Source of the DNA: Nymphaea colorata
Taxonomy: Eukaryota > Streptophyta > Magnoliopsida > Nymphaeales > Nymphaeaceae
Length of the DNA stretch: 64,000 nt
Direction: 5' to 3'
Assembly (NCBI RefSeq): GCF_008831285.2
Contig: NC_045138.2
Span: 25,515,934 to 25,579,933 of the forward strand
Shown: piece by piece, positions 7,105 to 60,281 of the stretch
Layout: the number at the start of each line of letters is the position of its first letter
Position numbering within the stretch: position 1 is the stretch's first letter
Made by a program: the position numbers and the translations under genes
Notes under the pieces: generated by a model
What the model was told of the DNA's origin: nothing
What the model saw: only the letters and a program-made list of their open reading frames with translations
Database searches by the model: none

Positions 7105-10100
7105 CTATAGTTGGCCGATTTTCTTGGATAGCCATCCAACCCTCATATTTGGTTGCAGATTCAAAAAAATGGCTGCCTTGTTGCTGTCTTCAAATAAATC
7201 CAAAGACTTCATAAAAAAGTCATCATTAATCTCCCCTTTCCCATGCATTTCCTTCAAGATCTGCCCACATTTATTGATGAGGTTCAAGGACGACGCATCT
7301 ATAAAAGATTTGACACATTGGCAAAGGTTCCCTAACATCTCCGATATCTGCATGTGACCAGTAGGTGGGAGATCGCTGGACTCCTTCGCTTCGGGTTTAG
7401 TGCCAAAAGATGGCTCATTTGGGGGTAGGCTTTGGACTGGGTTTTCATCTTGTGCTAAGGATGTATATGAAGTCATTTCGTCAACAGACTGTGGAGGAGG
7501 AGGCAGAGTCTCACACTGACCACTGTTGTTTGCTTCATGTGACTCCATGACTACTGTGGTGGGCTCCTCAAATATCTCTAAAAATTCTTCAAAGTACTTC
7601 CACTTATCAGCATCTCTGTACTGTCGCCTTGAAGGGTATCTCTGCCAAGGATACAGACCACCCACTAGCATAAGAAACAGTAACCAAAATACACAACAGT
7701 ACTCGGTTCACCGCTTGTTCCGATAAGAAATGTTTGAACTTACCTGAATATAGTCACTCCACACAGCATCATCAACCTGAATCTGCTTCCTTTCTTTGTT
7801 CCACGAGAAGCCATTAGTATTTAAAATCTCTTTGCAGATGTGCATGTTAGGTCTGGCACGCTTCAACTTATTTTTAATCTTTTCTAAGTTATACTCTGGC
7901 CCAAATCTCTCAATCATCTTTCTTTCTACTTCCCGCATAGCCTTGCCTCTTAATTTCCCTCCCAGCTTCATGCCTGGTGTACGTGCTTGTTCTAGCATAC
8001 ATGTAATTAGATACTCAACCTGATAATCACTCCATTTGAGGGTACCATTCCTATCTGATTGTCCCTCATCTTGTGTATCTAAATTAAACAATCAACAAAC
8101 AACAATTAATTATGAGCACCAATACACAGATAAGTAAACATATGAGAAAATTTGATAAAGAAACAGATAGGAGACCCGTCAACATCCTACAATATGTCAC
8201 TGAAATTCACAAAAGGCACTAGCACGTTCCAAGTTGAGATTGCATTTGTACTAAAACACCAGGATTTTACGTTCCACACGTTATTAAAACCCCAAGCATA
8301 ATAATGTAAGAAAAACCACAACTATTCTCACATGTAAGCATCATGCACCAGAACCCTACTTGTAGAACAGAACACAAGCATTAACATGAAAACCTAGTTG
8401 CACTAACATGTCGAGATTGCAATTAAAACCTAAGCATGTCACCGGAAATCTCATATCCCAGCGATAAATAATCTAAAATTACATATGCAAGTCTAAAATC
8501 ATAATCACTAGCAAGGAATTTGGGCAACAACAATAGACAACCTACACACATATGCTGCTCAATCTAGCACCAGGACAAGTGGACTCACATTGATCATCAT
8601 TTTCTGCTTCACACAGTGTCCCAATTGCCATTGCATCCCTACCCTCGCTTACTGTACTTGATTCATCATATATCTCTGACAATTGTTCATAGTATTTCCA
8701 TTTATCAGGATTTCTGTATGGACGCCTTGATGGATATGCCTGCATAGCCAAAGATAGAAGGTAGAAGGAAGAATCCAGGCCAGCCAGTATGAATTTAAAA
8801 CACAAATCAGCATATATATATATATATTCTGTGATACTATATCACCACTATTTTGATAAAGGAGACATCTAAATAAATTTACCTTAATGTACTCTCTCCA
8901 TACTGCATCATCTACTTCAATACATTTTTTCTCACTGTTCCAGGAGAACCCCGCAGTGTTTAACAACTCTTTGCAAACGCGCAAATTTGGCCTTGCACGT
9001 TTCAACTTGTTTTTAATCTTGTCTAAATTATATTCTGGACCAAATCTCTCCATCATCTTCACAGCTACAGCCATCATAGCATTTAGTTTCAATCCTCCGC
9101 CTGCCTTCATTCCAGGTATGCGTGCTTGCTCTAACATACACTCAATTAGATAATCAACCTGATGACTACTCCATGTAAGGCTACTGTCTCTCTCACATTG
9201 TCCTTCATCTTGTTCCATAGCTAATTTCCAAAGTTTCAAACAACCGAAGCACAATAAGTATGGCAACTAAACATAAAATGTAAATGACATAGGGATAGGA
9301 CACCTATAAGTACTTGAGAATCACCTACTGGGGAAAATGTGACCACTTAGTTAAATAAACAAAATGTTTTGTTCCTAAACATTCCAATTGGTTGGAAGAG
9401 CCATAAATATAGCAAAACTCCTTCATTACTCTGAAAACCATCAATTCATGTAAAGACAAATGAAATAATTCCAAGTAACCAGTAAAATGCAAGCATTTTG
9501 CATATCATTAACACGAGGTCTGATTGCATTAAACCCCCATAATTCCTAAAATTTCTCAAAGCATCCAAAATCCCTTCTCAGGTTTAAAACCAAAGCAGTG
9601 GAAAAACTTACCCTAATTTGCTATTGAAAGTTGAAACCCCATCCTTAACCAATAGTCACAAGTAAAAACTCTTTGGACATTATCAACATTTTGAAGCCAA
9701 CCAATAATATCGACACAATATTACAATATCTCCAAAAAATTGCAGAAAATAGTTACCACAATATTAACATGATATTTTCCTTTTGAAAAAATCCTCCTTG
9801 TATGCACATTTCTTATTTTGTGTTTCTTTTATAATGTAAAAATTTGTGCAAATGTTGGCCAATGTTTCATGAGAAAAGTAGCAGGCTAGCAGCAAAACAT
9901 AATCTCATAATTTGCTATCGGCATCTAAAAAAATCCTAGAAATTGCCAAGAATGAGACCTGTAAGCATTAGAAGGAAAACCCGTGCATTTCCATGTTTTG
10001 GAAGACCTCAGTTATTCCAACATGTGATTGAATCAAGGGAAACAAATTTAAAAATGTGAGGGGATGTCTCACATTGATCATCATTGTTTGAGTCACATGG

Positions 10101-10698
10101 TGTCTCATGTGCTACTATGGCTCCATGCTCTCCATGCTCATCCGCTGCAGTGGCATCTTCAAATATTTCTGAAAATTCTTTGTAGTACTTCCACTTATCA
10201 GCATTTCTGTATGGTCGTCTTGAAGGATATTTCTAGAAAAAAAAAAAGAAAAAGAAAAAAAGATAGTCCGGCCGTATGTGTAAAACAACATCACCGAATA
10301 GACAACACTCTAAAGCTTTATATTACACTACTCAGCTCATGTCAAAAGAGAAGTTCGAAATTTACCTGAACGTAACTTTTCCAAATAGCATCATCCACCT
10401 CAATCTGCTTCTTTCTATCATTCCAAGCAAATCCATCAGTCTTCAACATCTCTCTGCAGATGTGCATGTTTGGTTTGGCTCGCTTCAGCTTATTTTTAAT
10501 CTTTTCTAAATTATAATCCTGCCCGAACCTCTTAATCATCTTCTTTTCTACTGCCCTCATTGCCTTTCCTTTCAATGCCCCTCCTGACTTCATCCCTGGA
10601 ATACGTGCTTGTTCTAACATACATGCAATTAAATAATCAAGTTGTTGGTCGCTCCATTTTAGACTGCTCCGCTCCATTTGCCCTTCAGCTTGTTCCAT
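7105..10698 (-). CDS. MYB/SANT-like DNA-binding protein with three tandem domains
   Basis: Six coding exons on the minus strand: 10366-10698, 10073-10232, 8883-9220, 8589-8739, 7744-8078 and 7105-7641. All junctions are GT-AG and keep frame, giving 617 residues. Each of three modules has a long exon with the MYB/SANT-like fold (W-S-x-x-Q-x-x-YLI, YNLEKIKNKLKRA, GF-W-N, VDD-x-W-x-Y) and a short exon starting YPSRRPYRN-DKWKYY. This matches the plant Myb_DNA-bind_3 type domain found in L10-interacting-MYB-like proteins and in PIF/Harbinger-associated proteins. The final exon adds an acidic, proline-containing linker and a helical tail (LDLFEDSNKAAIFLNL...W) seen at the C-terminus of such proteins. 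The predicted role is nuclear DNA binding or protein interaction; the target is unknown. The start is ATG-GAA-CAA at 10696-10698, two bases after a splice acceptor, so the upstream exons are untranslated. Confidence 0.88.
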
Positions 10699-11654
10699 GA
10701 CTAAATTTAAACAGCCAAAGAAGCAGAAGGATGAACAAGGGTAAAGTACGTAAAATGGATGGGCAAATATCCTATACTTAATTACGGCAAATCTTTTTGT
10801 TATAAAACCTTCAATTAATGAAGCCCCAAAAGATGTCACTAAAAGCACCAGTATTTGTAGTACACCACCAAATATGAAGTAATTTACATTCAAATTCCAA
10901 GCATTTAAAAATTCGTTTTCCTGTTTAAGACCCCACGTACTAGTAATATGAAATTCCATTGAAATAGCATGTGACCAAAGTCTTAAGCATAAAATCGCCG
11001 AGCACCCAAGGTGCAAGCACTAAATCTTAGAATTCCATTTTCAGGGAAAGAAAAAGATCAAAGTAAAAGAAGAACCTAATGCAAGCATCAACACAAAGAT
11101 AGCACAAGCTTAAACAGCCTGACATGCCGCTGGGCATTAAAACAAGCATCAGGCGAAGAGGGCGAAGAGCATTCAATTTCTGAATGCCTAAATAAACATC
11201 CAAAAGCTGTTAAGGAAACATGAGAAAAAGGGAGGAAAAACCATCAAGAGAACATAGAAAGCAGACCGTTTTCAGCAGAGAACATAGCATATGAGCAAAG
11301 GAACAGCCTTTGAAGTCCATCAAAAACACTCCTTCAGCATGACCGCGCAGTTCATAAAGACAACATTCCGGACAAGCTCGTGAAAATCAATTAATAACCA
11401 AGCATAACTACGCAAGTCGGGAAAATCCATTTTTGATAACCAAGCAAAAATGAGCCCACATACACGAAGCATAGCATACCCAAAAAAGAAAATTTGTGCT
11501 AAAGAAGTAGCAAAATCGAAAGAATTACAAACAAAACCGCGCAAGCAACCAAAGGAAGGGAAAAAACACAGCAAAACCCCTAAAGCTAAACATAACACAA
11601 CCGGATAAAGGAGAAGAGCGAAGAACGGGAATGGCGAAGGGAGAAGGCACTCAC

Positions 11655-13796: not shown

Positions 13797-14728
13797 CTAA
13801 TTGAATGGAGCCTGCAACTTTTCGATGACTTTCTTATCGACTTGGAAAGCCCTGGCAAGGAGGTCTGCCGAGATGGGTGGGTTGGACCCAAACACCGATT
13901 TAGCAATAGTGATCACACCTGGGTTCTGGCTGCTCAGTGCAGCCAGTGCCACCGCGTTCTTGTCTCCTATGTTCAGCTGAAAGTGGATCAAACCCTCTGG
14001 AAACACAAACACATCTCCCTTGTACAATGTCTTCGCGAACAGTCGGTTGTTGTCCTGATTACTAGTCACAAACCCAACGTATAGAGTGCCTTCCAACACG
14101 ACCAAGATCTCGGTTGCGCGAGGGTGCGTGTGAGGTGGGTTCTGGCCCCATGGAGCGTAGTCAATGCGAACCGCAGAAATGCCCAGAGTGTTGAGTCCCG
14201 GGATTTGTTCAACATTGACCTGGGTCACATTGGAGCCAACCGCATTCTTAGTGTTGCCAGGCTTGTCCAGCCCATGGAAGAAGAAATCTCCAGGCATGGC
14301 GTCCTTAGGGTTCTTGCACACTTTGCCATTCACAACAACTGCACGCATTTGACAATGAAATTAATCAGGAATCAAAGTTTAAGAATCAGTATAAGCATGT
14401 CGAGTAACAAAATAATATGGCAGTGATCATCTATAAAGTTAAGATATGTACACTTACAAGTCTGGTTTTAGACAATAATACATGGTCATTATGGTACTGA
14501 ACGTTCATGACCTATATGAATGTGAAACATTAAAATGTGCTGTATGTATGTGCATCTATGTGTGTGCATGTCTTCTCAAGTACGTGTGTGTGCATATGCA
14601 TGCACCAAGAGTGAAAAAGTACTTGGGCTCTGGTTGTCAGCAACACAAAAGTCTTGTAACTGGCTTGGATCAGATGCGCTGCAGAAGGAAACTGCAAGAG
14701 TGAGGAGGATGAGGAAGGTGAGTTTCAT
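13797..14728 (-). CDS. Germin-like protein (GLP-2), secreted cupin
   Basis: Two exons on the minus strand: 14623-14728 and 13797-14338. The single intron falls at exactly the same codon as in GLP-1 (CCAA|GTACTT to GTGCAG|TTGTTG). The product is 215 residues. It has an N-terminal signal peptide ([18 protein letters not shown]), box 1 QDFCVAD, the metal-binding set [10 protein letters not shown] and [14 protein letters not shown] with three His and one Glu, and N-glycosylation sequons NQS near residue 32 and NVT near residue 72. It ends KLQAPFN, whereas GLP-1 has extra residues ending DNNN. The close match in sequence, intron and flanks to GLP-1 marks a paralogue pair; the MYB/SANT-like gene lies between them. 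The predicted protein is an apoplastic Mn-cupin with undetermined enzymatic activity. Confidence 0.95.
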
Positions 14729-14839: not shown

Positions 14840-17100
14840 GCTCAAACTAGAGAAGGCCTTAGCTAATGAACATCAGCCGAACCCTGACTTGCTGATGGAT
14901 GCACACTAACCTCGACGACTTTTCCATCATATCTAATAATTTGCAGAACTGACTAACAACTGTACTTTGATGTTGTCACCGCACCTGCTCAAGAACTACT
15001 AAAGGTAGTTTTATGAATTGTCTGCAATTAGCGAGCTGTCTGACAGTGCCTTCTTCCAAAGTCGTTGCTTCCTCTACTGGTGCTCTACAGTCTCATGGGC
15101 AGCAGCTTCCTACTGTTAAGTACAGCTAAATGAGGTCTAAATGCAACTTTTTTCAGATATATTTATTTGACAAAGACAGGTAGAGAATGCCTCTAAAATA
15201 ACATTGTAATGTGCTTAAATGGTTTCAAATACATAGCAATGTTGACTACTGTAGGACATTTAAAGTAATGTGCTGTTAGTTGATGAGACTATATGCGAAA
15301 GCTGCAAATTAATTCCAAACTATGAACCATTCAGGAACCCAAACAGCGACGTGACAGTGGTGTTTCCCCCAAACATCTAGCGGCTCGGTTCCAGTACATA
15401 GTTGGTGGTGGGCCGATGGCGGCTTTTAACTATTGGTGTAAAACATGACGTGGAGAATCCATGAGACTAGTAATGAAGTACTTGTGAATGATGGTAGCTA
15501 GTGGGTAAGAGGTAATGAATCGGTTCTCTCAACCACAATGGGATGGGACTTCTCCTGAACCGTGAGGTTCAAACTAATTTGAGTGTTTGGTTGCCGAAGT
15601 TGAGATCTAATGGGTATTTTCATTTTTTTCCCCTCTGGTGGAAACGCAGTCTGCTGCATTTGAGTTCACTGTAAACACACGACATAGATCATATAGTTTT
15701 GAAAGAAAGGTACATAATGATTGTGCATAGTACATAGTCATATATATAGTGATTATAAGAAACAGTAATTGATTAGACACCACAAATATACATTCACTAT
15801 AAAAGATCATGTCTGTCATAGACAATCGCAAAAGTGGGTGGCGGTCGCATTAATTTGATTAATTGTAGTCGGGGGTTGATTAATCTGACTTGCAATTTAA
15901 AGGCTGATACGTCAGAATCCATCTGAACAATGCTACAGTCACTGAAGACGCATGACTTGCCCTTTGGCTTTCTCAATCAAACTTAAGTGGATTAGGTTCA
16001 TTAAAGAAGCCACTTCTTACTCATTGATCGGGAAGTAAAGGGCCGGGTTAAATTCCAGTTTACTTGTGAGGTAAATGTCACCGACTCACTTGTGACGAAG
16101 TTGGGTAGCAGGATACAAAAAGCCGCATCGAGTCCAATTTAAATACGATTGCCTATTCTTTAATTAAGATGAGCTTAATGTGTCACCAATGGACCCTCCA
16201 GTAGTAGTTTTAGTCATTGATTTCAATGCATTCATTAGGTGGCCTGAGAATATGCTTTTTCTTGACAACATGGATGCCATATTTGAGCTCGCTTATCCTT
16301 TCAATATCTCACTTTGTTCAGGTAGATAACAGAGACATCATGGTTCACTGTACAGTAGACCTGCAGAAGAACCGTAATCCGAAAGGTCTTGAGTTCTGGA
16401 AGCTATACGTAGGAGTAAAGGGCCGGGTTAAATTCCATCGGCACCCTTAGTAAGGAATACCGTCTGATATGGGCAAAATTCACTAAATTGCATTGAGTTG
16501 CAAGGAGATGCAAAAATGTAGAAAATATGAACCTGAGATTGAAATTTGATAATTTGACATACATTAGATCACTAGGCGGATTCCGCATAACGAACTACAA
16601 CCAAAACTGAACCTGAGGCAGTAGATGTAAGATTTTCGATCCTAAGCTAGTTGAACTTGTTCCATTTAGATTCGCCCTTTCAATTCTATTTGGAATATGG
16701 TGAAATTCCGTTTCAATTCAATTCTGTGAAGGCCACCTTATTTTGCCGGTCGAGGGCATCAACCAATGATGAATGCCCGTATTTGTATTCTAGTTGTGAA
16801 ACCCTTTCATTTGCGATCTTAATTTGTTCATTGATGGTCATGTTCTCACACGGCAGAAAGCAGAAAGATGCAGAATAAAGAGATTGGTTTAGGTCAGGCA
16901 TGTACAACATTATTTTGGGGAAGGCGTAGGACTTAGATCGATCCTAATCCAACCTTCGTAGGACCATGTCCGAACCTGTATATGTGGCCAAAGAAGGGAA
17001 CCATGTATATTCAATTAAATCAAGTGCACACTTCAACTATTAAAATTCCTCTGGCATGAAACCGAATTATGAAATAAATGGGTCTCTCTCTCTCTCTCTC
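14840..17100. other. Intergenic upstream of GLP-2; contains a spaced 24-bp direct repeat
   Basis: No gene recognised. A 24-bp exact repeat containing AAAGGGCCGGGTTAAATT occurs at 16034-16057 and 16414-16437, exactly 380 bp apart. A (CT)n tract lies at about 17082-17109. Confidence 0.5.
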
Positions 17101-17153
17101 TCTCTCTCTTTTGTGGAGACTGAAAGCACAGACAAAGTAACCATCCACAAAGA

Positions 17154-20100
17154 TTACCAAAAGTACCACCGCTTCTTACTGCCCGAATCCTGTGGCTCTT
17201 CCTTCCTCCTGTTTGCCATTCCCTGATTCAGAGCTTCTAATCTTTTCCTGCGAAATAAACAAATATATGGTCAGTAAATATGAAGGCATAAAACTTCTAC
17301 ACCGATAAGAGTACATGCAACAAACGACCAACCAATACTGCAAATTTAAGAACACAACGGCACATTGACATATATTGGACATTTAAGAACACATTCTGCT
17401 TCAATTGCAGAGTCCAGATAACAAGTCAAATGGCGTTCAAACCAGCCATATTATCTGGTAATAGAACTGTAATACGGTGGAAACTGGAGAGAAATTTGTG
17501 TGTTTGGGACCCTTGGATATGACATCGTGACTAAAAGTACAGGTTCTAATTGGGGATCCCACAAGTTGTTCGCAAGCACTCTTGGTTTCTAGGCAGCTTC
17601 AGTATTTGAAATTGTTAAGACGTGTTTATACTCAGTATTAGGCTTGAGAGGGCACTTGTGTAATAATGTTTCTTTTAATGACTTTCTTGTAACTTATCCC
17701 TCTCCTCTAGTCTATATAAAGAGGAGTTAGGGATTCTTTCGATGTTAATCAAAGATTATTTCTCTTAAATTCATCATGGTATCAGAGCTCCAGCCGTCTC
17801 CTCCTCAGCGAGTTGTCGCCGACTGAGCGGCGCCGGCCGCCGCCTCATCGGCGTCAGTCGCCGCCGCCGCCCTTTGCCGCCCTGTCCATTGCCGCCCGCT
17901 GTCCATTGCCGCCTGATCCATCCCTGCTGCCCCTCGTCGCCCTACCCATTGTCTGCCTGCGCCGCCTCCGCCTGTGCCGCCTGCGCCCGTCTGCCTACGC
18001 CCGTCCGCCTGCGCCGCCGCCGCCCGTCTGCCTGCGCCTCCGCCTGTGCCGCCTGCGCCCGTCCGCCTGTGCCGCCGCCGCGTGTGCACTCCGCCCAGCA
18101 CATCTTCGCCGCCGCCTCAATGCTGATTTTTCCTCTCTGCGTCTTTCCGCTGCATGCTGCTCAGCCGCTGCTCTGCACGCTGCTCCTCTGCTGCACGCTG
18201 CTCCGCCGCTGCTCTGCCCGTGGTTCTGCACGCTGATTTTCTTCTCAGCGTCGTCTCTGGTATCTCTCTTCGTTCAACTCTGCTGTTGCCTCTTCTCGCC
18301 GATCAGACTTCTGGATTGCTACCTGCGTTAACTGCATATTGCTTCATGATCAGCATGTTGTCTTTCGATATGTGATTGTATTCTTTTGCCTGCACTTCCT
18401 ATTCCGTGGCTCGGTTTCCTCCTTTGTGTTGAAAGATGTCTGAAATTAGTAGTAGCGCTAATACCTCTTCCTTTGTATCGTCGGGAGAGATGAAGAGTTC
18501 CCCATTTTCCAGCATTATCACCAAAATGGATGGGGGTAATTACGAGATGTGGGCCATGCAAGTAAAAAGAACTTTGATCGCCCATGAGAAGGAACATCTC
18601 ATATTGGAGCCCGAGCCCGTACAGAAGGTAGGAAAATATACTACTTGGTTTAAAGATAATTCATTGGTTATGGTATGGATTGTTGGTACTCTCTCACAAG
18701 AAATTGCAAATGAAGTCTTGCACAAGGACAGTGCAAAGGATATGTGGAATTCCCTTGCTGCCACTTATTCACAGGCAAGAAATGAAACGCGCATTATGCA
18801 GCTTCATCATGATATCCATCAGATGCGACAAGATGGCAGACCTCTTCACACTTATTATTCTAGTCTCAAGTCCATGTTTGAGAGACTGAATAGCTACTTT
18901 CCCGCATGCAAGTGTGAACAACAAAAGGCATACAGAGATATGCTTATGGTAGGGGTCTTTCTTTCTGGTTTAGACTCTGTTTATGAATCCGCAAAGAACC
19001 AAATGCTTACTAGTCCCTCGATTCCTCCTATTGATGAGGCTTACAGTAGGCTCAGCAGAATTCCGATCTCTGCATCGACTGTTCCTGATACCACTTCTGC
19101 TATGCTTGCTACTCGTGGCAGAGGTGGACCCTTTTTTGCCAGAGGACGAGGGGGCCGTGGCCGTGGCAATACCCCTTCGCGCCCTGTATGTCAGTTTTGT
19201 CACCGCATTGGTCATACTGTGGATAAGTGTTGGCAGAAACATGGTCGTCCAGCTTTTGCAAATCAGACTGTATCTACTGATTCTCCTGAGCAGCCTAAGC
19301 CTCAGCACACTGCCTCCTCCAGTGAGTTGCATGTAAATGACATTCTCTCTCAGTTGAGGCACTTGATTGGCGACAGCGCCCATCCAGCCCCTGGTCCGAC
19401 CACTTCTACTGTTCCTACCGCTGCGAGTGCTTCTTCATCTGGTATGTATTCTGCCTGTACAGTCTGCTCTCCTCCTGACACTACAGATTGGCTTATTGAT
19501 TCTGGTGCATCGACACATCTCTGTGGGGATAAGACGCAATTCTCCTCTTACGTCCCTACTCCACCGGGTCGTTCGGTTATTCTAGCAGATGGAAAAGATT
19601 CACCAGTTGTTGGACATGGAGAGGTCCAACTTACTTCATCATTGCCGCTGCAGCACGTTCTTCATGCACCAGAATTCCCCCATAGCCTACTTTCTATCAG
19701 TCAGATTACCAGAGAATTAAATTGTCGTGCTATATTTGACTCTTCCTCTCTTGTGTTTCAGGATATACTGACGGGCAGGGTGATTGGCAGTGGCCGTGAA
19801 CAGGGAGGTCTCTACAGGCTAGTGCATTCCTTTCCCTTTGCTGGATCTACCTCGTCGGGGTCGTCCTCATCCTCGGCTTATACTTGGCATTTACGTTTTG
19901 GACATCTCCCGTTTCAGAAACTGCTGCATGTTCTCCCTCAGCTGTCTCATAAGTCGTCTTTTCAATGTGAGTCTTGTCAGTTAGGCAAACACCATCGGTC
20001 ATCCTTTCCTCCGCGGTCTAGTAGAAGTAGCCACTCTGTGTTTGAGTTACTTCATTTTGATGTTTGGGGCCCGAGTCGTACTCCTGACCTTCAGGGTCAT

Positions 20101-23100
20101 CGGTATTATCTTGTTGCTGTTGATGATTACAGTCGTGTTAGTTGGGTTTTTCTTATGAAACACAAATCTGAAGCGGGTCATGTAATCAAAAATTTTATCA
20201 ATGAAATTCTGACTCAGTTTGATACTTGTGTCAAGATTGTGCGCTCTGACAATGCTCTTGAGTTCTGTGCTTCCTCTTTAGAACAATTTTTCAGGGATAA
20301 GGGTATCATTCACCAAACTTCTTGTGCCTATACCTCTCAACAAAACGGGGTTGCTGAAAGAAAACACCGCCATATTCTTGATGTCGCCAGAACCATTATC
20401 ATACACAGCCATGTTCCCCATTCTTATTGGGGAGATGCTGTTCTTACAGCATGCTATCTTATTAATCGCATGCCGTCATCCGTGTTGGGAGATCTTATTC
20501 CTTTCTCTGTTCTTTTTCCTGACAGAGAATTGTTTTCTGTTGCACCTCGTATTTTTGGATGTGTTGCCTTTGTTTAGTTGCTTGGTCCTGGGAGAGATAA
20601 GTTATCCCCTCGGGCTATCAAAACGATCTTTGTTGGTTATTCCCGCACTCAAAAGGGATATCGTTGTTATGATCCTTCTACTCGTCGATATTATGTGAGT
20701 GCTGATGTTACATTTTTTGAGTCCACCTCTTATTTCTCTCCCAATGGAACTCAATTAAGGGTGCCTGAATTTAGTGATGAAGTCCACCTTCCTTTACCTC
20801 TCATGAGTTATCCACAACCCGTTGCTTCGCGTTTTGGGGTTATCTACCAACGTCGCACTAAACCTGTTCAACCTGCCCCCTGTGCTCCTGTGCCTTCACC
20901 CAGCATGCCCAAGGTACTTCCTGAACACACAAATCCTGCTGACCATTCTTTATGTGATGATGCCACAGGGGACTCTCCAGAGCATGCTACTGGTCCTCAT
21001 ATTAATGAACTTGATATGCCTATTGCTCAAAGGAAAGGCAAACGCAGTTGCACTATGCATCCTCTCTCTGGTCATTTGTCCATGGCTCGACTCACTCCTA
21101 CTTACCGACAGTTTGTCAAGGGACTGTCGGCTGTAGCTCTTCCACAGACTCCCATGGACGCTCTTTCTGATCCCAAATGGGCCGCAGCTATGCAAGAAGA
21201 GATGGATGCCCTTCAGTCTAGAGGCACCTGGACACTAGTTACTCCTTCATCTGATGCAGCTATTGTTGGTTGTCGATGGGTATTTACTGTTAAATACAGA
21301 GCAGATGGCAGCATTGAGAGATATAAGGCTCGCCTGGTTGCAAAAGGCTATACTCAGACTTATGGGGTTGATTATTATGATACCTTCTCTCCTGTGGCAC
21401 GACATGCTTCTTTACGGGTTCTTCTCGCTGTTGCCGTCAGCAAGAATTGGTCTCTATCACAGCTTGATGTCAAAAATGCCTTTCTGTATGGTGACCTACA
21501 TGAAGAAGTGTATATGCAGCAACCACCAGGGTTTGTTGCTGAGGGGGAGTGTCAGAAAGTGTGTAGATTGAGAAAGGCAATTTATGGTCTGAAACAAAGT
21601 CCTCGAGCTTGGTTTCAAAAATTATCAGAGAATATTGAGAATGAGGGCTTCAGACGTTCTTCGGCTGATCATTCCCTTTTTGTCAAGAAAACTTCTACAG
21701 GTACAGTGATAGTTATTGTCTATGTTGATGATATCATTGTTACAGGGGATGATATTCAGGGGATTTCCAACATCAAGGGCGTCCTTGGACGACACTTTGT
21801 CACCAAGGATCTTGGTGAGCTACGCTATTTCCTAGGTATTGAGTTTGCCAGAAATCAGAAGGGTCTTATCATGTGCCAAAGGAAATACGTTACTGATGTC
21901 TTGCAAGAGACAGGTATGCTAGGATGTCGACCTGCCTCTACACCCATGGACATCAATACTCGCTTGTATGATGATGATACTGAAGATGTTGATGCTAGAC
22001 AATATAGAGGGATTGTTGGGAAGCTCCTATATATCACTGTTACTCGACCTGATATTGCCTATGCTGTCAGCAGAGTGAGTCAATTTATGGATAAGCCCAA
22101 GAAAGTCCATTGGGATGCTGCCATGATGATTCTCAGGTATCTGAAAAATTCACCAGGAATGGGACTCTTCTTTCAAAATGGTACATCTCTCACTATATCT
22201 GTGTATGTTGATGCTGATTATGCGGGATGTCACCTTGACAGAAAATCCACTACTGGGTTTTGTGTGTTCATTGGATCCAACTTGGTTACATGGAAGAGTA
22301 AGAAGCAGACAGTGGTTGCCAGATCAAGTGCAGAATCTGAGTATAGAGCTATGGCTCAGGCTACTGCTGAAGTTATGTGGGTTAGATCTCTGATGTTGGA
22401 TCTTACTGTGGAAGTGCCTCTTCCTATGCAATTGTTAGGTGATAACAAAGCTGCTCTGTTTATTGCTAATAATCCTGCTTTCCATGAGAGAACCAAGCAT
22501 GTTGAAGTAGATTGTCACTATACCAGAGACATGATTCAAAAGGGGTTTGTAAGTACCTCACATATTTCAACTACAGGGCAAACTGCTGATATTTTTACTA
22601 AAGCTCTTGCAAGAGGACCATTCCAAAGTTGTTCCAAGTTGAGCTTGTTTGACATATACGCTCCAACTTGAGGGGGAGTGTTAAGACGTGTTTATACTCA
22701 GTATTAGGCTTGAGAGGGCACTTGTGTAATAATGTTTCTTTTAATGACTTTCTTGTAACTTATCCCTCTCCTCTAGTCTATATAAAGAGGAGTTAGGGAT
22801 TCTTTCGATGTTAATCAAAGATTATTTCTCTTAAATTCATCAGAAATAAATAAGGTATTTCCCAGAACATGCATTAGCATTAGTCGTATCAAAGCATTGC
22901 ATTGTCAAGCCTACCTACACGATGGATGGTGGAGTTGCATAGACAACTCTACCTTCAATGCAATGTCGGCATTTGGTAGAACTTTCACTTAAATTTGCAG
23001 AAAACAGGCATATCTATTCAACAATTTTATTTGACGTGTTGAGGCCAAGCCAGGCTTCAAAACTGTCATGAGGCAAGGCATAGGCACATAAACATAAGCT

Positions 23101-26100
23101 TCATGACTAAATACTAAATAGTGAGGACATATAATATCAATAAAAAAAAAGAAATATATGAAAAAAGCAACGAAATTGACAAATATATAATTATATACAA
23201 CATTGAATCATCTTAACAAAGAATCATGTTCAATAACCATATATCATGCAACAATAAGACAACTAAATTACTTGATAGTTGGTAGCAATTGCGTAAATAT
23301 AATATGACCTGAAAGAATTAAATAGAAAAGACGTGTTTATGTTTGGGTTTGGATCCAGGTTCAAACTGTGGATCCTATGGGTGTGTTTTTTTACCCAGGC
23401 ACGTAAACAATGGCAGAAATGTAAATTTTGTATTATCTACTACTAAGCCATGTAAAAATGTGCTTGATATTAAAGAGAATCAGGACACGCCCATTTCTTC
23501 TGAGGCTGCCATTAAACTGTTGGAAAAGCCTCTTCTTGCTCTGTCGTTTCTTCACAGGTCAACGACTTTGGACATCAAGTTTTGACTTCTGACATATGTA
23601 CTTCAACAATCACATATGCTTAGTGCAAAACAAAAGAGACATTCCCCAAAAATATGGCCTGACACGGTATATAAAATGGCAATAACACAACTTTAAAAAA
23701 ATGCTCCAGAACTAAATGAACATAACAAAGATCAGGATGGCAACATGGAGACAACTTGAACTACAAAGTGAGAAGGATTTCTAACAATTAAATATTGCAG
23801 GTACTAGCCTCTCAATCAACACTACAAGCTATAGTTGGACTGATTCATATACCCCACAGTTTCAAACAGTTTATTGCAATAACGAAAACATTCCCCAAAT
23901 TACAACTTCAAATAACAATTCAGTGTCAAGGCTATTCAAATGATCCAGCAACGAGAACAGCACAAGCTCAAGAATGCAAGAAGAGCAAATCATAATAATA
24001 AACAAAATCTTAAGTATCTGGACCTCAAATTATTCAATAATCAGGTCGAGGGAAACTCAACAAGGCTAAGATTTTGGAAGAACTATAAAAATCTAACAAT
24101 TACACCAAAAGAAAAAACTGTATGACCAGCCATCTGCCCCACAGTTGCATCACTAGTTATCGTCCCCTCCAGCCAGATCCACTCACAGTTTTGTAGCCAC
24201 ATCAACAGGTTTCTCCATTCATCAAATCAATTTCCATGTTGCGCAACTGCCTTTGTGATTGTGGTCTCCTTCCACCCAAAAGGGTAGAGATAGAGAGAGA
24301 AAGAGGTGGCAAGGGGGTCACTGAAGTAGGTTTTATTTTCCTTAAGTTCTTAGGTTTGTCATTAGGTGCACGCTTTATATCTGAGGTGCACCCCAGCAAG
24401 AAGTGTGAGCTTCACAAGGAAAAATAGAGATAACCCTTATGTTAGCCATAATACATGGGACTGCACAAGCTTTGCACCAAGAGACACCTCAAGGCAGCTA
24501 GTTCATGCCTCACCCTGAAGTGTATGCTTTGAGGCCTGAAGCATATACCTTCCATAACATGCATCACACACCTTGTTTCCAAACAGAGTCCTCGTATATC
24601 TAGATACATGTTTCAAGCATTGAGCATTGAGTTTCGAGTATGAACAATATTCACAGCAAATCCAAAGGCTGTGATTCATAATCATGTAAGTCCAGCATTG
24701 ACCACCAAGCCCATTATCCTCCTAGTCTTCTCTCAATTCATAAGGGTGTGCCTCAAAAATTCCAATTATTCATTTTCATTAGTGCAAATCCAATAGGATA
24801 AACATACCTAAGAAAAAGTAACAGTGAAAAGGCCTTCCTACAACAGAGAGAAAAAGACTATTTATTTCCCAAAGATATATACATGGTTCAACTACAAAAA
24901 GCGCATGCATGGTAAAACATGGTGTAAATTGTCTGCATATAAGAAGAAACATAAGGTAAAAAGTACCTTGTGTCCTCGAGATTCCCATGCAAGCTCCACC
25001 TCTGTCTAAAACCTTCCATGCCCTCTATTCCACTTGCAAGAATCATGCGCCTGAAATTTTGTATCATACATGATCAGAGTAAGCAAGAGCTAAATTTTCT
25101 ACCTCCCTATCTTATATCTAAAAGGGGGTGGATATTTATCTGAAGTGCTCGTTCAAAAGGGATGAAAAAATCACGAGATCTCATTAGGAAGAAAACAACA
25201 AAAAATCACCCAATATGTTACCCCTGGGAGGTCGTTGTTATGGGAAGAAACAAACAGCACAAAAGAAAGGTTAAAAAAGATATATATAATATAAGTGGTC
25301 CTTTATACTTATAGCACTATGCAGCTAGTACTCTAGATGGCCTAATGCATTTGGTTCAATGCTATAATCTCAGGGAATTCATAAATGGACTTCATTAACA
25401 GTGAAACATATTGCTTGCTATTCAGAGGAACTTGAGATTTGAGAATAATAAAAGAGTAGTGACTGCAGTGTGAGTTAAAGAAATGAGAAAAGTAAAAGAC
25501 AAGGACATGACCATAAACGTATTGTAGATCACAAGATTGCGCTGACCTATTACGTGTTTTACATACATGATAAACTCATAATTATTCATGTAATAACTTC
25601 CAATGACATGCATGCTTGGTATACTGCTACTATATGCATCAAAGCCATTTTGTAATTGTCAGTATACTGCACATCAACACCAAAGGTGCGACTGCCAGAC
25701 CGGACCAGCTGGTTTTTTTTTTGCCATGAAGTGTGAGACGGAGGAAGCGGATAATTGCCCTAATCAGAATGCGCATGCTGGTCGGCGGGGAAAAAACGGA
25801 GGAAAGCCCAACAGGGATGGCGGGGAACGAGTGGAGGAACGCCCAACATGGATGGAGTGTGAGATGGAGGAAGCGGCAGAAAGCCCTACTCAAAATGCGC
25901 AGGCAGATGATGGGGCGTGTGAAGGAAATGGACCCGGTCGGTTGGGCAAAGCATTGCCCTGTCTCTCGTTGGTGCCCCTTCCAAGCTCTGGTAGCCATCT
26001 TAACCCTGGACCAGGGGATTTCTGCTGCTGGCTCTCCATCTGTGAGTTTCTTACATGTTGACCTCATGTGAGTGAGGGCACCACAAATGTCACAAAATGA

Positions 26101-29100
26101 AATCCCGGATTCGTAGACAACCTCCTGTGAGATTTGTCGACCATCCCCCAAATCCAGAGAAACCCACGGCACCTGGGAGAAATTAATTGGCACTTCAATC
26201 TTTACTCTTGCAAACCGACCTTCTCCCATTTGCCCGACCAGCTATCTTCCTCCACATATTCCTCTCGAAGGGCCCTCGCTATGCCCTTGTAGCAAGATTC
26301 ATTCCATAGGTGGATCGGTAGCTGAATCACCTCATGTCCCCTTACCTTTTCATTTTATTAATGGAAATGGTAGCTAAGTATCTTAAGGACAAATAATGAG
26401 GAGGGCCATTCGCCTCGCCTCCCCTCCTCTCTTAGAGCCATGCCTGATCTCCATTGCTTAATGTTTGCAGATAATCTCCTGCTATATAGTGTTGCTTCGT
26501 TTAAATCGCTAACCAGAATTAAGAGTGTCCTGAGTCAGCTAGAAGAGAGAGTGGGCTTCATAATCAACAACTCCAAATCTTCTCTGATTACCTTTAACGT
26601 TGACACTCCACTAGAGCAAAGGTTGGCCAACATTGGTGGCTGGCAGGTTAAGCTGTCTATGGAATATTTGGGTGTTCCTCTTTTTACAGGAGACTTAAAC
26701 GTGGAGCTTTGCGCAGGGTTGATTACGAAATTTGAGAAGAAAATGGCACCCTGGAAATCCCAACTTCTATCCTATGTAGAGCGTGCATGTCTTATCACTC
26801 ATAACCTGAGCTCCATGGATAATTTTTGGATGCAATCTTTCTCTCTCCCTCATGATGTAGTGAAGAAACTGGAGAGATGCATGGCCAGCTTCCTTTGGGC
26901 TGATACTGAGAAAACCCGACATAGCTACCAAATTGTCTGGCGTACATTATGTAAGCCCAAGGTGGAAGGAGGGATTGGTATACGCCTTCTTGAGGATGTT
27001 AATGATTCCCTCCTAGCGAGCAGGTTGTGCTCTTCCTTTAATAACAACTCCCTCTTTGCTCAGTGGTGCAGGACTAGATATCTTAATTGTAAGAATTTGT
27101 GGACTGTGCGATAAGCCGACAACCATGGAAGGGATCTTGGGCTTGGAAAAGCTTAGGAAAAGGTTGGAAAAAGATAGCCAACTGGGTGAGGTGGAAGATT
27201 GGTGATGGCAAATTAGTCTCCTTCTGGTCAGATTGGTAGCATGATGAAATTCTGGTGAAATCCATCTGTGGGGAGGACTATGGTGTCATAGTCGATCAGC
27301 TGAAGCTTTGAGTGGTCGAGGTTAGGGAGATGGGTGAGGCCAGACTAGCTTTGCCAAGCAAGGTTTTAGCTGTGACTGTATGTATTCAACTAATGAGGCT
27401 GACAAACTAGTTAGTAATGCCCAAAAACTCAAGGATCTAAGCTCTAGATCGATTTGAGAAGCCACAAGGCACAAGGATAGTCAGGAAGGCTAGCGGAAGG
27501 GTATATGGAACAAACATATCCCAATCAGAGCTAGTTGGACTACTTACATTGCCAGCCACATGAGACTGACCACTCAAGACAAACTAAAAAGACACGGAAT
27601 GCATTTGGCTAATAGATGCCACCTATGCAAAAGGGAGAAGGAAAACAATGTGCACATCATGTTCAAGTACTCAGTAGTACAGCAGGTGTGGAGAAAGGTG
27701 ATTACAAGGTTTGGCACGAGTAGGCTCCCATGGCAGAGTATAGATAAGGAAATCCAGCTTTGGAGAAAGGTGTCGTTAAAGGCTAAATGGCTTAGAAAAT
27801 GTTGGATGTTGCTTTTCCCAATCATGGTTTGGAAGTTGTGGTGGTTTAGGAATGAAGTGGCACATGAGAGAATGACCACAGTTACAACTGAACATATTTT
27901 CTCTGCTATTTTGGTGCTCAGCTGATGAGGCTTTTCAAAGTTTGCAGTTGGAGGAAGAGGAGCGAAAGGCAATGTCGACTTGGTTGTTGACTGGAATCCT
28001 GTTTAAGGGCAGGCTCTCAACCTTAAACAGGGAAGCTAGTGTGCTTCAAATTGTCACTTGTAAAAAGGGCATTAAAACCACGATGTTGGGCATGTGGAGC
28101 TTGAGAGGAATGGAATCCAGTGAGGCCTTACTTACTGAAGCTCACTCTCGGGACGATGATGCAGAATTACACATGCTGAATGGCTGCAATCTATGGCGAG
28201 AGTCATGGCAGTTTTGGGATCATATCGAACAATGAAGGTTGGAAACGATGACTTAAAGCGATGCTGGAAGGCAGGAGGCCGATCAATCAGAAATGGCAAC
28301 ACATTAGGGCACTCAGCCAACGTATAAGGGTACTTTGCCAACTGCCTACTTTAGAGGCTGGGGAGCAGATGTGTCAGTATGGAGAACGAGATGCGAGGGA
28401 TGATGGTGGTTAATGATAAGTAAGCTTTACAGTTACTGTTAGTGCTTTAGTCTACGCTTTTAATCAGGAGCAGCCACGCTGGTGGTTTTTTTGGCCTATT
28501 GGTGGCAGTTTTGGGGCAGCTGGGTTATGCTTGCCTGGGTTCTTTCTTTTTTTCTACTGCTGTGGCTGATGCTCAGCTTTTGTAAATCTTTCTTTTGTCC
28601 TGTACATAACTTTATTTTTTCTGCAATAAAAGGGAGGGAGCCTATCTCCCAGCAGCCATTTATTGGTAAGACATTTTCCTTGAGAGTCAAGATGTGAAAC
28701 AGTTCAGAAGTGGGTTTTGAACCCTAAAATCTCAGCTGATGTTTTAAAAATTAAAAATATTATGATTCCCCCATCAACATCCTTCTTTATCTTGAATTTC
28801 ATTTCTTATTCTTTCCAATTTCATTAAGCATTCATTCATTTGGACAAATATAAAGGTTCCACATAATGAAAAGCATCAACCACTATGCTCCTTATAACTG
28901 ATTAGGTTATCTATACGTTCTCCCACTCCCAATATAAATCACATTTCTGAAATTTTTTTGAGGGCAATGCATTTCAGTAAAATAGCTTCACAAGCTACTA
29001 CAAGACAAAACCTTAATTATTTGAAGCTTTGTGAGAGAAGAAATTTGGAAACTTGTGCCTAAGTTAAACCAAGGGACCCTTGAACAACAAGAGGCTATCC

Positions 29101-30637
29101 AAGATTACCTTGGAAGATTAAGAAAATTCACTTCAAAAATTATGGATTACAAGTATATATGCTATCCGAAGATATAGCAGATCAAAAGAAAATTTGCTGC
29201 TCTCCTATACAAAGGTTTTTCTAGCTGAGTAATCTACTACAAGTTAAAAGCTGTCAGTTTAACCTCAATGACAATACATGACTAGTAAAACAACAAATGT
29301 GCAAGTTTATACCTCTCTAGTGTAGTAATATCTGATTGAAGTTGAGCAGCTCTAGCTTTTGCCTCATCTAAAGGCATTGAGGAACCTAGCGTTCGTTCAC
29401 TCTGTTGAAGCCTTTTCCTTAATTCATTATCCTGCAAATTAGTGTACAAATGAGCACTAGAAAAAAAAAATGTATATTTGTTTCTGAAATGAATGACCAC
29501 TGGTTAATGCCACATCAAAGATCATATCATACTCAGGAGGAAAAGAAATCTGAAAGCACAGAATCAAACATTTCAAAAAAGATGTACAGGACTCTCACCC
29601 GCTTTTCAGCACATTGCCGATACAAGGAAATCTCATCTTGACAAAATGGTTCAATATCATTGATTTGCAAACCTAAATAATTGTTTTACAATTAAACTTC
29701 TGGTAAAATTCACACTAATGCTAAAAAAGATGACTATAGCATGCTTAAACTACAGACTGCTGGCAAGTAAACAAATCATTCTCATAAAACAACTCAACCC
29801 CAATAAGTTAGGTGCAGATGACTTTTTGTTAACATCCCATCAACAGAGAAGGGTTGTAATAATATACATGAAACAGCAAGACTTGAATCAGCTTTCTTAG
29901 AACCATTATATACAAAATGTTTCACATGCTTCCACAAATTTACCTTTCCAGAATATAGGACCTCATACAAGTGAATGTGCCATTCAAGAACCTAGAATTC
30001 CACAAGTAATCAAAGCCCCAATTCAAGTTCAACAAACTGCAGGGAGTAGCCGGCCAATGGAAGTAAATAAGAGCAGGTCATGCGACTGAGTTACACATGA
30101 ACAAGGATATTGTGAGCTGGCATATCACACGGTGCTCCACTGCAACAACAGCATTAATCCCTATCCCATTTGTTAGTCAACGCACTCAGACAGACATTGA
30201 ACATCTTCAACATGAGGTTACCATCACAATGGTGGGAAAGAATTTTCCAATTTACAAAGGTCCTGAGACTGAGCAGCCTTTCCAATTGTAAAATGCAGAG
30301 TCCTAAGAGTTAAAACTGGGAGGCCTTGAACCAACAAAGATCAGATTTCTTTTCCTTTAATATATGTAAAATTACTTTCTCTGTATGAGAGAACTTACAT
30401 AAGAAAAGGTTTCTGAGAATGCCATCACACAATTCAACTCCTTCAAGTACATGTGATGCTATCTCTGGGGGAATGATAGGAGATGGCGGCCCCATCATAA
30501 GATCATCACCCACCAAAATGGTCTCCTCCATTACTGGCTCTTTGTCCACTGAGGCCCGAAAAGTTTCCATCACATCACAAAATCCAGTAAAATAACAAAA
30601 ACGCAAACACTGGAAACAAAGTCATCTTACCATCCAT
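17154..30637 (-). CDS. Twin-CX9C (CHCH-like) coiled-coil protein, transposon-expanded gene
   Basis: Six coding exons on the minus strand: 30631-30637, 30399-30548, 29599-29672, 29313-29431, 24967-25050 and 17154-17247. All introns are GT-AG and the phases fit, giving 175 residues. The order is an acidic start, a proline-rich stretch GPPSPIIPPE, then two CX9C motifs (Cys43/Cys53 and Cys63/Cys73, separated by nine residues). A charged, probably coiled-coil region follows with EGFRQRWSLHG near residues 129-139, and the tail is basic, ending KKRWYFW. Twin CX9C is the signature of CHCH-fold proteins, often in the mitochondrial intermembrane space or respiratory-complex assembly. I do not recognise the exact family, so function is inference. 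The 7-nt first coding exon (ATGGATG|GTAAGA) is the least certain; if its intron is retained, an in-frame ATG lies about 36 nt upstream of exon 2. Introns 4 (4.3 kb) and 5 (7.7 kb) hold a LINE relic and a Copia element. Confidence 0.85.
17608..17612. repeat. Copia target-site duplication, left
   Basis: GAAAT directly before the 5' LTR; the same five bases follow the 3' LTR at 22843-22847. Confidence 0.9.
17613..17776 (+). repeat. 5' LTR of the Copia element
   Basis: 164 bp from TGTTAAGACG to AATTCATCA, identical by eye to 22679-22842. It contains a TATA box (TATATAAA at 17713-17720), the presumed element promoter. Confidence 0.97.
17777..17790 (+). other. Primer-binding site (initiator tRNA-Met)
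   Basis: TGGTATCAGAGCTC begins at the first base after the LTR, the standard Copia primer site complementary to the 3' end of initiator methionine tRNA. Confidence 0.95.
17791..18435 (+). other. GC-rich repeated leader of the Copia element
   Basis: About 645 nt between the primer site and the gag start. From 17810 to 18210 it is dominated by GCC, CGCC and CTGC words. A block starting CCTCCGCCTGTGCC recurs at 17965 and 18037 (72-bp spacing), and a CTGC/CGCTGCTCTGC block repeats around 18150-18222. Open frames on both strands here are low-complexity and probably not coding. Confidence 0.8.
18436..20577 (+). pseudogene. Copia gag, protease and integrase part of the polyprotein
   Basis: The frame runs 713 codons to an in-frame TAG. 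It starts with gag (the region with MDGGNYEMWAMQVK is typical), then a CCHC zinc knuckle (CQFCHRIGHTVDKC, about residue 252). Protease follows with DWLIDSGAST (about 354), then the pre-integrase zinc region (HLRFGH...CESCQLGKHH). Integrase has the catalytic Asp in LLHFDVWGP (about 540), Asp in IVRSDNALEF (about 601) and Glu in GVAERKH (about 640). The frame breaks just after FGCVAFV at the end of the integrase core, and homology continues in the same frame after the stop. I therefore read one polyprotein gene interrupted by a nonsense codon rather than two natural genes. Confidence 0.9.
20578..22671 (+). pseudogene. Copia integrase C-terminus, reverse transcriptase and RNase H
   Basis: The same frame continues after the TAG to a TGA at 22669-22671. 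It opens with the integrase C-terminal segment (GRDKLSPRA...FVGYS). Reverse transcriptase follows with ARLVAKGYTQ, QLDVKNAFLYG and the catalytic YVDDIIVTGDD (about 380 codons in). RNase H comes last, with SAESEYRAM and DNKAALFIANNP. There is no frameshift or further stop, so the catalytic centres look intact. Translation of this half would need stop readthrough or another copy's products. Confidence 0.92.
22668..22678 (+). other. Polypurine tract of the Copia element
   Basis: TTGAGGGGGAG directly abuts the 3' LTR, the usual plus-strand primer. It overlaps the stop codon of the pol frame. Confidence 0.9.
22679..22842 (+). repeat. 3' LTR of the Copia element
   Basis: 164 bp, no differences seen from the 5' LTR; followed by the GAAAT target duplication. 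Confidence 0.97.
22843..22847. repeat. Copia target-site duplication, right
   Basis: GAAAT directly after the 3' LTR, matching 17608-17612. Confidence 0.9.
22848..24966. other. Remainder of intron 5 of the twin-CX9C gene
   Basis: AT-rich intronic sequence with no exon-like segment that fits the gene. An 80-codon plus-strand ORF at 23343-23585 starts with SINE- or retrogene-like sequence but has no recognisable domain. Confidence 0.5.
25639..26229 (-). pseudogene. LINE ORF1 fragment with CCHC zinc knuckle
   Basis: The minus-strand frame reads RFARVKIEVPINF...VVYESGISFCDICGALTHMRSTC. This is the end of a DUF4283-like gag domain followed by a CX2CX4HX4C knuckle, as in plant L1 ORF1. The rest of the frame is low-quality and overlaps an imperfect tandem repeat (period about 127 bp, 25730 and 25857). 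Confidence 0.65.
25690..28640. mobile_element. Degenerate L1-type LINE relic in two opposed pieces
   Basis: The right piece (about 26310-28640, plus strand) carries the C-terminal part of a LINE reverse transcriptase and a zf-RVT-like region. It ends near a CTGCAATAAAAGGGAGGG motif typical of plant L1 3' ends. The left piece (about 25690-26290) carries an ORF1-like zinc-knuckle protein on the minus strand. Both lie in intron 4 of the twin-CX9C gene. The endonuclease and most of the RT are missing, and multiple stops and frame changes make it dead. Outer borders are approximate; no target duplication was identified. Confidence 0.75.
26326..28240 (+). pseudogene. LINE reverse transcriptase / zf-RVT fragment
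   Basis: A first piece at 26326-26396 gives MSPYLFILLMEMVAKYL, the RT block after the GDPLSPYLF-type motif. The main frame, 26440-27114, contains LMFADNLLLYS; the usual FADD catalytic pair is FADN here, so a metal-binding Asp is lost. It continues into the thumb region (YLGVPLF..., W.S.LLSY..R). A later frame, 27560-27925, has the zf-RVT-like RCHLCKREKENNVHIMF...VW and WWFRNEVAHE. Stops and frameshifts separate the pieces. Confidence 0.85.
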
Positions 30638-30686: not shown

Positions 30687-31230
30687 GCCTGCAAATGCAA
30701 GTAGTCGTTATTGAACACCTCTCGGTAACATCCAGAGGCTAGTCCGTGTGTGTGTGTGTGTGTGTGTGCGTGTTTGTAGATCAGAAAAATTGATATGTGC
30801 TTTCTTCTCTGCTTTCAACAACCAGTTGCGATTATCAGAGGAAATAATCGAACCCCAAACGACAAAAAACAAGGCCATCGCTCTGTGAAACGTAGAGAGA
30901 AAGAGAGGGAGAGAAAAAAAGGGCTGATGCGGCGGCCGCATGAAGAAAGAGAGAGAGAGAGAGAGAGAGGTGGTGCCGCCGTTGCAGCCCATCCACCCGC
31001 CGTGAATCAGGCGTGTAAGAGAGAGAAAGATAGGGGGGATACCTGTGAAGCCGTCTGCGAAGACAACAGGGGGTCGACACGCCGGCTCCGACAATAGTGA
31101 GTCGAGAAGCGATGGCGGGACGAGAGAAGAGAGGGAGACGGGTTTCTGGCGCGCTCTTCCTCACTTCCGATATGGGAGAACAGGAGCCGTCCGATATCTC
31201 TAAAATCGGATAATCGGACGGCTCCCAATC
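30687..31230 (-). other. 5' leader region of the twin-CX9C gene
   Basis: The minus strand has an acceptor TTTGCAG|GCACTC (exon edge about 30686) and an upstream donor CACAG|GTATCC (exon edge about 31043). They define a leader intron of about 355 nt and a first non-coding exon near 31043-31230. The intron contains (GT)n at 30746-30768 and (GA)n at 30947-30968. ORFs here are low-complexity products of those repeats. Confidence 0.45.
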
Positions 31231-60255: not shown

Positions 60256-60281
60256 CCTTTGCTCTTGTTTTCCTTTGGAAT

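What the first reader, a model, noticed from the sequence alone, without database searches (positions are those of the whole stretch)
17154..30637. A 528-nt coding sequence spread over 13.5 kb by transposons in two introns
Six small exons join in frame into a 175-residue protein with two CX9C motifs. Intron 4 (25051-29312) holds a LINE relic and intron 5 (17248-24966) holds a young Copia element. The 84-nt and 94-nt exons flanking intron 5 are invisible to ORF tracks, so automatic annotation may truncate the protein or split the locus.
Basis: partly seen in the sequence, partly recalled or inferred. Interest (0 to 1): 0.75.

Follow-up and report, generated by a model that had tools for sequence, protein, structure and literature searches.

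The report
Small plant gene stretched by transposons
A short, widely conserved flowering-plant gene of unknown function is spread over 13.5 kb of a water-lily-family genome, largely because two retrotransposons landed in its introns; this is an ordinary gene layout, but the public protein of a close relative is cut short exactly at the intron that is longest here.

Summary
On the minus strand, six coding exons with GT-AG borders join to 528 nt and 175 residues. The product matches Pfam DUF7803 end to end (PF25086, E 1.8e-98). The protein search found 509 relatives and listed 120; the best is a 175-residue Victoria cruziana protein, 95% identical. All 120 listed carry four evenly spaced cysteines, CX9C-X9-CX9C. 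Exon 5 is matched in 120 of 120; exon 6 is missing outright only in P0023.

Intron 5 holds a 5,230-bp Copia element, antisense, with identical 164-bp LTRs and a 5-bp target duplication. Intron 4 holds LINE remains in two head-to-head pieces. Without the Copia, intron 5 would still be about 2.5 kb.

The predicted annotation failure is seen in a relative: Nymphaea thermarum protein P0023 begins with residues that intron 1 encodes here and ends with read-through of intron 5. Function is unproven; a mitochondrial intermembrane-space disulfide protein is likeliest. No transcript was available and the host-genome search did not complete. Ordinary; interest low.

The parts
30631..30637 (-). Coding end of exon 1 (ATGGATG: M1, D2 and the first base of V3)
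   Evidence: GT donor follows directly; 116 of 120 listed relatives contain MDVD, and the other four rejoin the family at V3
30399..30548 (-). Exon 2, 150 nt; holds Cys43 and the first base of the Cys53 codon
   Evidence: AG/GT borders; at least 40% identical in 120 of 120 listed relatives
29599..29672 (-). Exon 3, 74 nt; completes Cys53, holds Cys63 and Cys73
   Evidence: AG/GT borders; at least 40% identical in 120 of 120 listed relatives
29313..29431 (-). Exon 4, 119 nt
   Evidence: AG/GT borders; at least 40% identical in 120 of 120 listed relatives
25051..29312 (-). Intron 4, 4,262 nt, phase 2
26374..27922 (+). LINE 3' part: end of reverse transcriptase (RVT_1, 8.1e-05, below cut-off) and zf-RVT (7.2e-14, above cut-off), broken by stops
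25642..26354 (-). LINE 5' part in opposite orientation: weak zinc knuckle zf-CCHC_4 (0.0019, below cut-off) and weaker DUF4283 piece (0.085, below cut-off)
24967..25050 (-). Exon 5, 84 nt
   Evidence: AG/GT borders; at least 40% identical in 120 of 120 listed relatives
17248..24966 (-). Intron 5, 7,719 nt, phase 2
17613..22842 (+). Copia LTR retrotransposon, 5,230 bp, antisense to the gene; one in-frame TAG at 20575-20577 splits its coding sequence
   Evidence: identical LTRs 17613-17776 and 22679-22842; gag, integrase and RVT_2 domains
17608..17612 (.). Target-site duplication GAAAT, left copy
22843..22847 (.). Target-site duplication GAAAT, right copy
17154..17247 (-). Exon 6, 94 nt including the TAA stop; C-terminus KKRWYFW
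   Evidence: AG acceptor; at least 40% identical in 117 of 120 listed relatives, absent outright in P0023 only
30689..31042 (-). Possible 5' UTR intron, 354 nt, GT...AG; candidate only
   Evidence: borders checked; inference, no transcript

Best explanation
This is an ordinary, probably functional nuclear gene of the DUF7803 family in a water-lily-family plant, on the minus strand. Shown by sequence: six coding exons, and two introns enlarged by retrotransposons, a young antisense Copia insertion in intron 5 and an old, broken LINE in intron 4. Inferred: the introns are spliced out normally, so the insertions lengthen the transcript but leave the protein intact. Inferred, and less sure (about 0.6): the protein is a soluble helical protein whose first two helices form a CX9C-CX9C hairpin with disulfides 43-73 and 53-63, imported into the mitochondrial intermembrane space through the MIA40/ERV1 relay, with a following coiled coil and an aromatic C-terminal tail as the likely docking part. 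The confidence given is for the gene structure and its transposons, not for the protein's location.
For: Gene model and splice borders. Pfam DUF7803 over residues 1-175. 509 relatives at E up to 0.001, best 120 listed. CX9CX9CX9C in 120 of 120 listed; exactly four cysteines in 96 of 120. Exon-by-exon conservation. Copia: domains, LTRs, TG..CA ends and duplication. LINE: zf-RVT. Predicted helices 30-56, 60-95, 98-122 and 128-161, mean pLDDT 76, with two cysteines in each of the first two helices (modelled on the Victoria protein P0001 with 66 other relatives). Plant twin-CX9C import by MIA40/ERV1 as background: PMC5877523, passages seen.
Against: No transcript or expression data. No localisation test. 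Pfam's general CHCH model was not among the matches. No solved relative by single sequence; the profile search gave four chance-level matches, best E 0.44. Fold matches are generic coiled coils over residues 94-170 and say nothing about the cysteine hairpin. No AATAAA lies in the 700 nt after the stop codon, while four lie in intron 5 outside the Copia, where shuffles give about one; this leans, weakly, towards early transcript ends.
Confidence: 0.9

Rival explanations
1. The exons are remains of a gene that the insertions have killed: transcripts end early in intron 4 or 5 and no full protein is made.
For: AATAAA motifs lie on the gene strand in both introns: 3 in intron 4 and 5 in intron 5, the nearest about 100 nt past the exon 5 donor; none in the 700 nt after the stop. 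In intron 5 outside the Copia there are 4 against a mean of 1.1 in single-base shuffles, reached in 9 of 500. Intronic Copia elements can bring early polyadenylation in Arabidopsis (PMC7529245, passages). The N. thermarum record ends in intron 5.
Against: All exons are open with intact splice borders and the protein is 95% identical to the full-length Victoria protein. The AATAAA excess is seen in one of three stretches tested: intron 4 has 3 against 2.0 and the whole of intron 5 has 5 against 4.9. The Copia lies antisense, so its own polyadenylation signals face the other way (inference). If the Copia insertion is recent, decay might not show yet.
Confidence: 0.05
2. The truncated form (exons 2-5 plus read-through into intron 5) is a real alternative product in Nymphaea, made by polyadenylation inside intron 5, replacing the last helix and aromatic tail by about 25 other residues.
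For: P0023 has this ending, and the window's own intron reads in frame to a very similar ending before a stop. AATAAA is mildly over-represented in intron 5 outside the Copia (9 of 500 shuffles) and absent in the 700 nt after the normal stop.
Against: P0023 also starts inside intron 1, the usual sign of a gene-prediction error ('usual' is my judgement). None of the other 119 listed relatives ends at this border; P0115 departs later, after residue 163. Similar intron sequence is expected between close species without selection. The AATAAA test keeps base content only, and was one of three.
Confidence: 0.06
3. The protein is not mitochondrial; the four cysteines serve a cytosolic or nuclear role, for example metal binding.
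For: No localisation evidence was found; some relatives are labelled LEA-related or presequence protease, labels that look like transferred or fused annotation.
Against: The exact CX9C-X9-CX9C spacing in 120 of 120 listed relatives with the pairs on two neighbouring predicted helices is the pattern of disulfide-relay substrates (recalled); the labels are inconsistent with one another.
Confidence: 0.3

Closest known systems
DUF7803 family (Pfam PF25086)
   Same: Full length, all four cysteines, C-terminal aromatic tail
   Different: Nothing of note; the family name gives no function, and no paper in the held library contains the word DUF7803
Twin-CX9C proteins of the mitochondrial intermembrane space (COX17, COX19, CMC1, PET191 and others; PMC5877523, passages)
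   Same: Two CX9C motifs on neighbouring predicted helices
   Different: Has an extra pair of long C-terminal helices (that the named proteins lack them is recalled); no match to the general CHCH model; location untested
Copia retrotransposon in a plant intron, as at Arabidopsis RPP7/COPIA-R7 (PMC7529245, passages)
   Same: Copia element inside a long intron of a gene
   Different: Here the element is antisense, sits in the last intron, and any effect on transcripts is untested
Long LTR-rich introns in Chloranthus (PMC8626473, passages)
   Same: LTR elements as the main cause of intron length
   Different: Other lineage; one gene here, no genome-wide measure
LINE/L1 insertions in introns, Aristolochia genome (PMC8445822, passages)
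   Same: LINE inside an intron
   Different: That paper reports raised expression of such genes; no expression data here

Membership tests
DUF7803 (PF25086) | Match above Pfam's gathering score over the whole model | tested here: met
   328 bits against a cut-off of 27, model positions 1-178 of 178
Twin-CX9C disulfide-relay substrate | Two CX9C motifs | tested here: met
   Cys 43, 53, 63, 73; same spacing in 120 of 120 listed relatives
Twin-CX9C disulfide-relay substrate | Motifs on two antiparallel helices (helical hairpin) | tested here: inconclusive
   Helices 30-56 and 60-95 predicted, block means of pLDDT 76-87 from residue 31 to 100; coordinates not available, so neither packing nor disulfide distances were measured
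Twin-CX9C disulfide-relay substrate | Match to the general CHCH profile | tested here: inconclusive
   Not among the four Pfam matches up to E 1; HMMER filters drop weak matches
Twin-CX9C disulfide-relay substrate | Location in the intermembrane space and oxidation by MIA40/ERV1 | not testable with these tools
   Needs import or redox assay
Copia LTR retrotransposon | Paired LTRs with TG..CA ends and target-site duplication | tested here: met
   164 bp identical, TGTTAA..CATCA, GAAAT on both sides
Copia LTR retrotransposon | Integrase upstream of reverse transcriptase | tested here: met
   gag, pre-integrase and rve in 18433-20574; RVT_2 in 20578-22671
Copia LTR retrotransposon | Primer-binding site after the 5' LTR | tested here: met
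   TGGTATCAGAGC follows the LTR directly; that it pairs with initiator tRNA-Met is recalled
Plant L1-type LINE | Reverse transcriptase followed by zf-RVT | tested here: met
   zf-RVT above its cut-off; RVT_1 at 8.1e-05 but below its cut-off
Plant L1-type LINE | ORF1 zinc knuckle in the same orientation as the reverse transcriptase | tested here: not met
   The weak zinc knuckle (0.0019, below cut-off) lies on the other strand; so this copy is rearranged or is two fragments
Plant L1-type LINE | Target-site duplication and poly(A) end | tested here: inconclusive
   Exact repeats of 9 bases or more between 25050-26400 and 28000-29300 gave no convincing pair

The most novel reading that the evidence does not exclude
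In water lilies the long last intron is used as a switch: polyadenylation inside intron 5 gives a second DUF7803 protein that keeps the cysteine hairpin but loses the last helix and aromatic tail, and the published N. thermarum protein is a partly correct record of it. (Odds raised from 0.05 to 0.06 after the AATAAA count.)
Probability: 0.06. Interest if true: 0.5.

Novelty: new member of a known kind. Interest (0 to 1): 0.2.

Why it matters
It is a clear, checkable example of how long introns and a 7-nt coding start can lead gene finders to cut a conserved protein at both ends; the public N. thermarum entry probably needs correcting. It also points to a protein with no paper under its family name in the held library whose four cysteines are invariant in all 120 listed relatives, and which would repay a localisation test.

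Tried and rejected

Papers: DUF7803 is in 0 papers of the held library. Searches for plant twin-CX9C proteins (18 papers listed, one paper each) showed nothing on this protein in their listings; of these I looked at passages of PMC5877523 only. Searches on water lily introns and intronic transposons. The water lily genome paper PMC7015852 has no occurrence of intron, Copia, LTR or gene length in its main text (find). PMC12619087 (passages) describes MAKER annotation of N. thermarum; I did not establish that P0023 comes from that annotation.

LINE inversion: the head-to-head layout fits a 5' inversion during insertion (twin priming, recalled), but roughly the endonuclease and first part of the reverse transcriptase are missing between the pieces, and no duplication was found, so two separate fragments are not excluded.

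Copy number of the Copia, the empty site and paralogues of the gene could not be checked: the request to the window's own genome did not complete seven times.

Full report
Observation. Every intron begins GT and ends AG, and the join is one open frame of 175 residues plus a stop. Intron lengths are 82, 726, 167, 4,262 and 7,719 nt. No stop-to-stop ORF of at least 100 aa on the minus strand covers exon 5 or 6.

Is the gene real? Yes. The product matches one Pfam family, DUF7803, over residues 1-175 at 328 bits. A search of about 5.8 billion proteins returned 509 relatives at E up to 0.001, of which 120 are listed. The best is a 175-residue Victoria cruziana protein at 95% identity over the whole length. 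Next in identity is P0023 of Nymphaea thermarum (92% over 89% of the query); the other listed relatives lie at about 73-82%, among them Magnolia, Nelumbo, Acorus and Quercus. So the window is most likely from Nymphaeaceae, probably Nymphaea or a close genus (inference).

By exon, at 40% identity or more: exon 1 in 116 of 120, exons 2 to 5 in 120 of 120 each, exon 6 in 117 of 120 (exon borders rounded to whole residues). The three exon 6 misses are P0088 and P0106, both at 39% and both with the KWFFW tail, and P0023, which lacks the segment. P0115 departs from the family after residue 163 and P0096 after 171. Median identity is lowest in exon 6 (55%) and exon 4 (69%). Against the Victoria protein, exons 5 and 6 are 93% and 94% identical.

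Cysteines. Residues 43, 53, 63 and 73 are cysteines, so two CX9C motifs are separated by nine residues. The pattern CX9CX9CX9C is present in 120 of 120 listed relatives, and 96 of 120 have exactly four cysteines. The Cys53 codon is itself split by intron 2 (sequence).

Annotation failure seen in a relative. P0023, the public Nymphaea thermarum protein EJ110_NYTH34602, begins METFRVSVDK and ends DTRFFLSYVSSYMKTIHAMFYHACTFL. In this window, reading intron 1 just before exon 2 gives METFRASVDK, and reading through the exon 5 donor gives DTRYFLPYVSSYMQTIYTMFYHACAFCS and then a stop. Three other relatives (P0083, P0090, P0097) lack MDVD and, like P0023, rejoin the family at V3, where intron 1 lies here; this suggests that the first junction is old and that its tiny coding exon is sometimes missed.

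Transposons. Intron 5 holds a Copia element at 17613-22842 on the plus strand, antisense to the gene. Its two 164-bp LTRs are identical, with TG..CA ends, a GAAAT duplication on both sides, a primer-binding-site sequence after the 5' LTR and a purine tract before the 3' LTR. Its coding stretch carries gag, integrase and RVT_2 domains in Copia order, and is split by one in-frame TAG at 20575-20577; the SH3-like Pfam match starts at position 25 of its model just after that stop. With 0 differences in 164 sites the 95% upper bound is 1.8% divergence, about 0.7 million years at 1.3e-8 per site per year (the rate is recalled, from rice), so 'young' is fair but the bound is loose. Removing the element and one duplication leaves an intron of 2,484 nt.

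Intron 4 holds LINE remains: on the plus strand the end of a reverse transcriptase (26374-27111, E 8.1e-05, below cut-off) and zf-RVT (27494-27922, 52.6 bits, above the cut-off of 27.5); on the minus strand a weak zinc knuckle (25642-26241, 18.3 bits, below the cut-off of 27) and a weaker DUF4283 piece (0.085). The pieces lie head to head. This fits a 5' inversion at insertion, but no target duplication was found. The outer limits of the LINE were not fixed.

Mechanism. The simplest reading is that splicing removes both introns and the gene works. For the protein, the model of the Victoria relative has four helices (30-56, 60-95, 98-122, 128-161), mean pLDDT 76, pTM 0.63, with pLDDT under 50 at residues 1-25 and 162-170. 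Two of the four cysteines sit in each of the first two helices, as in disulfide-relay substrates of the mitochondrial intermembrane space; plants import such proteins with MIA40 and ERV1, MIA40 being dispensable in Arabidopsis (PMC5877523, passages; PMC10669224, start of abstract in the listing). I put about 0.6 on this location; it is inference from motif and helices. No chain in the PDB copy is a sequence relative at a meaningful E-value, which weakly argues against a stable subunit of solved plant respiratory complexes, though I did not check which plant complexes that copy contains.

Evidence that leans the other way. On the gene strand AATAAA occurs 3 times in intron 4, 5 times in intron 5 and not at all in the 700 nt after the stop. 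In intron 5 outside the Copia there are 4 against a mean of 1.1 in single-base shuffles (reached in 9 of 500); intron 4 (3 against 2.0) and the whole of intron 5 (5 against 4.9) are at chance. This is one of three tests and keeps base content only, so it is a weak hint that transcripts could end early; I raised the odds of the truncated-isoform reading from 0.05 to 0.06 for it.

Known background. Intronic transposons are common in plants: LTR elements are reported as the major contributor to long introns in Chloranthus (PMC8626473, passages), and genes with intronic LINE/L1 elements are reported as more highly expressed in Aristolochia (PMC8445822, passages). In Arabidopsis, IBM2 and EDM2 prevent early 3' end processing in long introns that carry T-DNA (PMC5364540, abstract), and EDM2 promotes full-length transcripts of genes with intronic Copia elements (PMC7529245, passages). 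Whether that applies here is untested.

Verdict. The locus is an ordinary member of a conserved plant family of unknown function with transposon-lengthened introns.

Noticed in passing
window 3439-4050 (-) and 13800-14360 (-): Two ORFs with strong Cupin_1 matches (E 4.3e-56 and 3.5e-55), probably germin-like protein genes (inference).
   Followed up: no
window 8652-9266 (-) and 10345-11019 (-): Two ORFs with Myb/SANT-like DNA-binding domain (PF12776), about 1 kb apart.
   Followed up: no
window 42693-43703 (-) and 59413-60351 (-): Two Dof zinc-finger ORFs on the same strand about 16 kb apart, possibly a duplicated pair.
   Followed up: no
window 20575-20577 (+): A single in-frame TAG interrupts the Copia coding sequence although its LTRs are identical.
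   Followed up: partly
window 17955-18081 (+): GC-rich tandem repeats in the Copia leader, within a 203-aa open frame (17720-18328) that has no Pfam match up to E 1.
   Followed up: partly
window 25642-27922: LINE pieces in head-to-head orientation, suggesting a 5' inversion during insertion or two separate fragments.
   Followed up: partly
window 25784-25855: A 35-bp unit repeated about twice at 83% matches inside the inverted LINE piece.
   Followed up: no
window 17083-17109: A perfect 27-bp TC/GA microsatellite in the probable 3' UTR.
   Followed up: no
window 22848-24966 (gene strand): Four AATAAA motifs against a shuffle mean of 1.1 (9 of 500 shuffles reach four), and none in the 700 nt after the stop codon.
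   Followed up: partly
protein P0023 (Nymphaea thermarum EJ110_NYTH34602): Public protein missing exons 1 and 6 and carrying residues that match this window's introns at both ends.
   Followed up: yes
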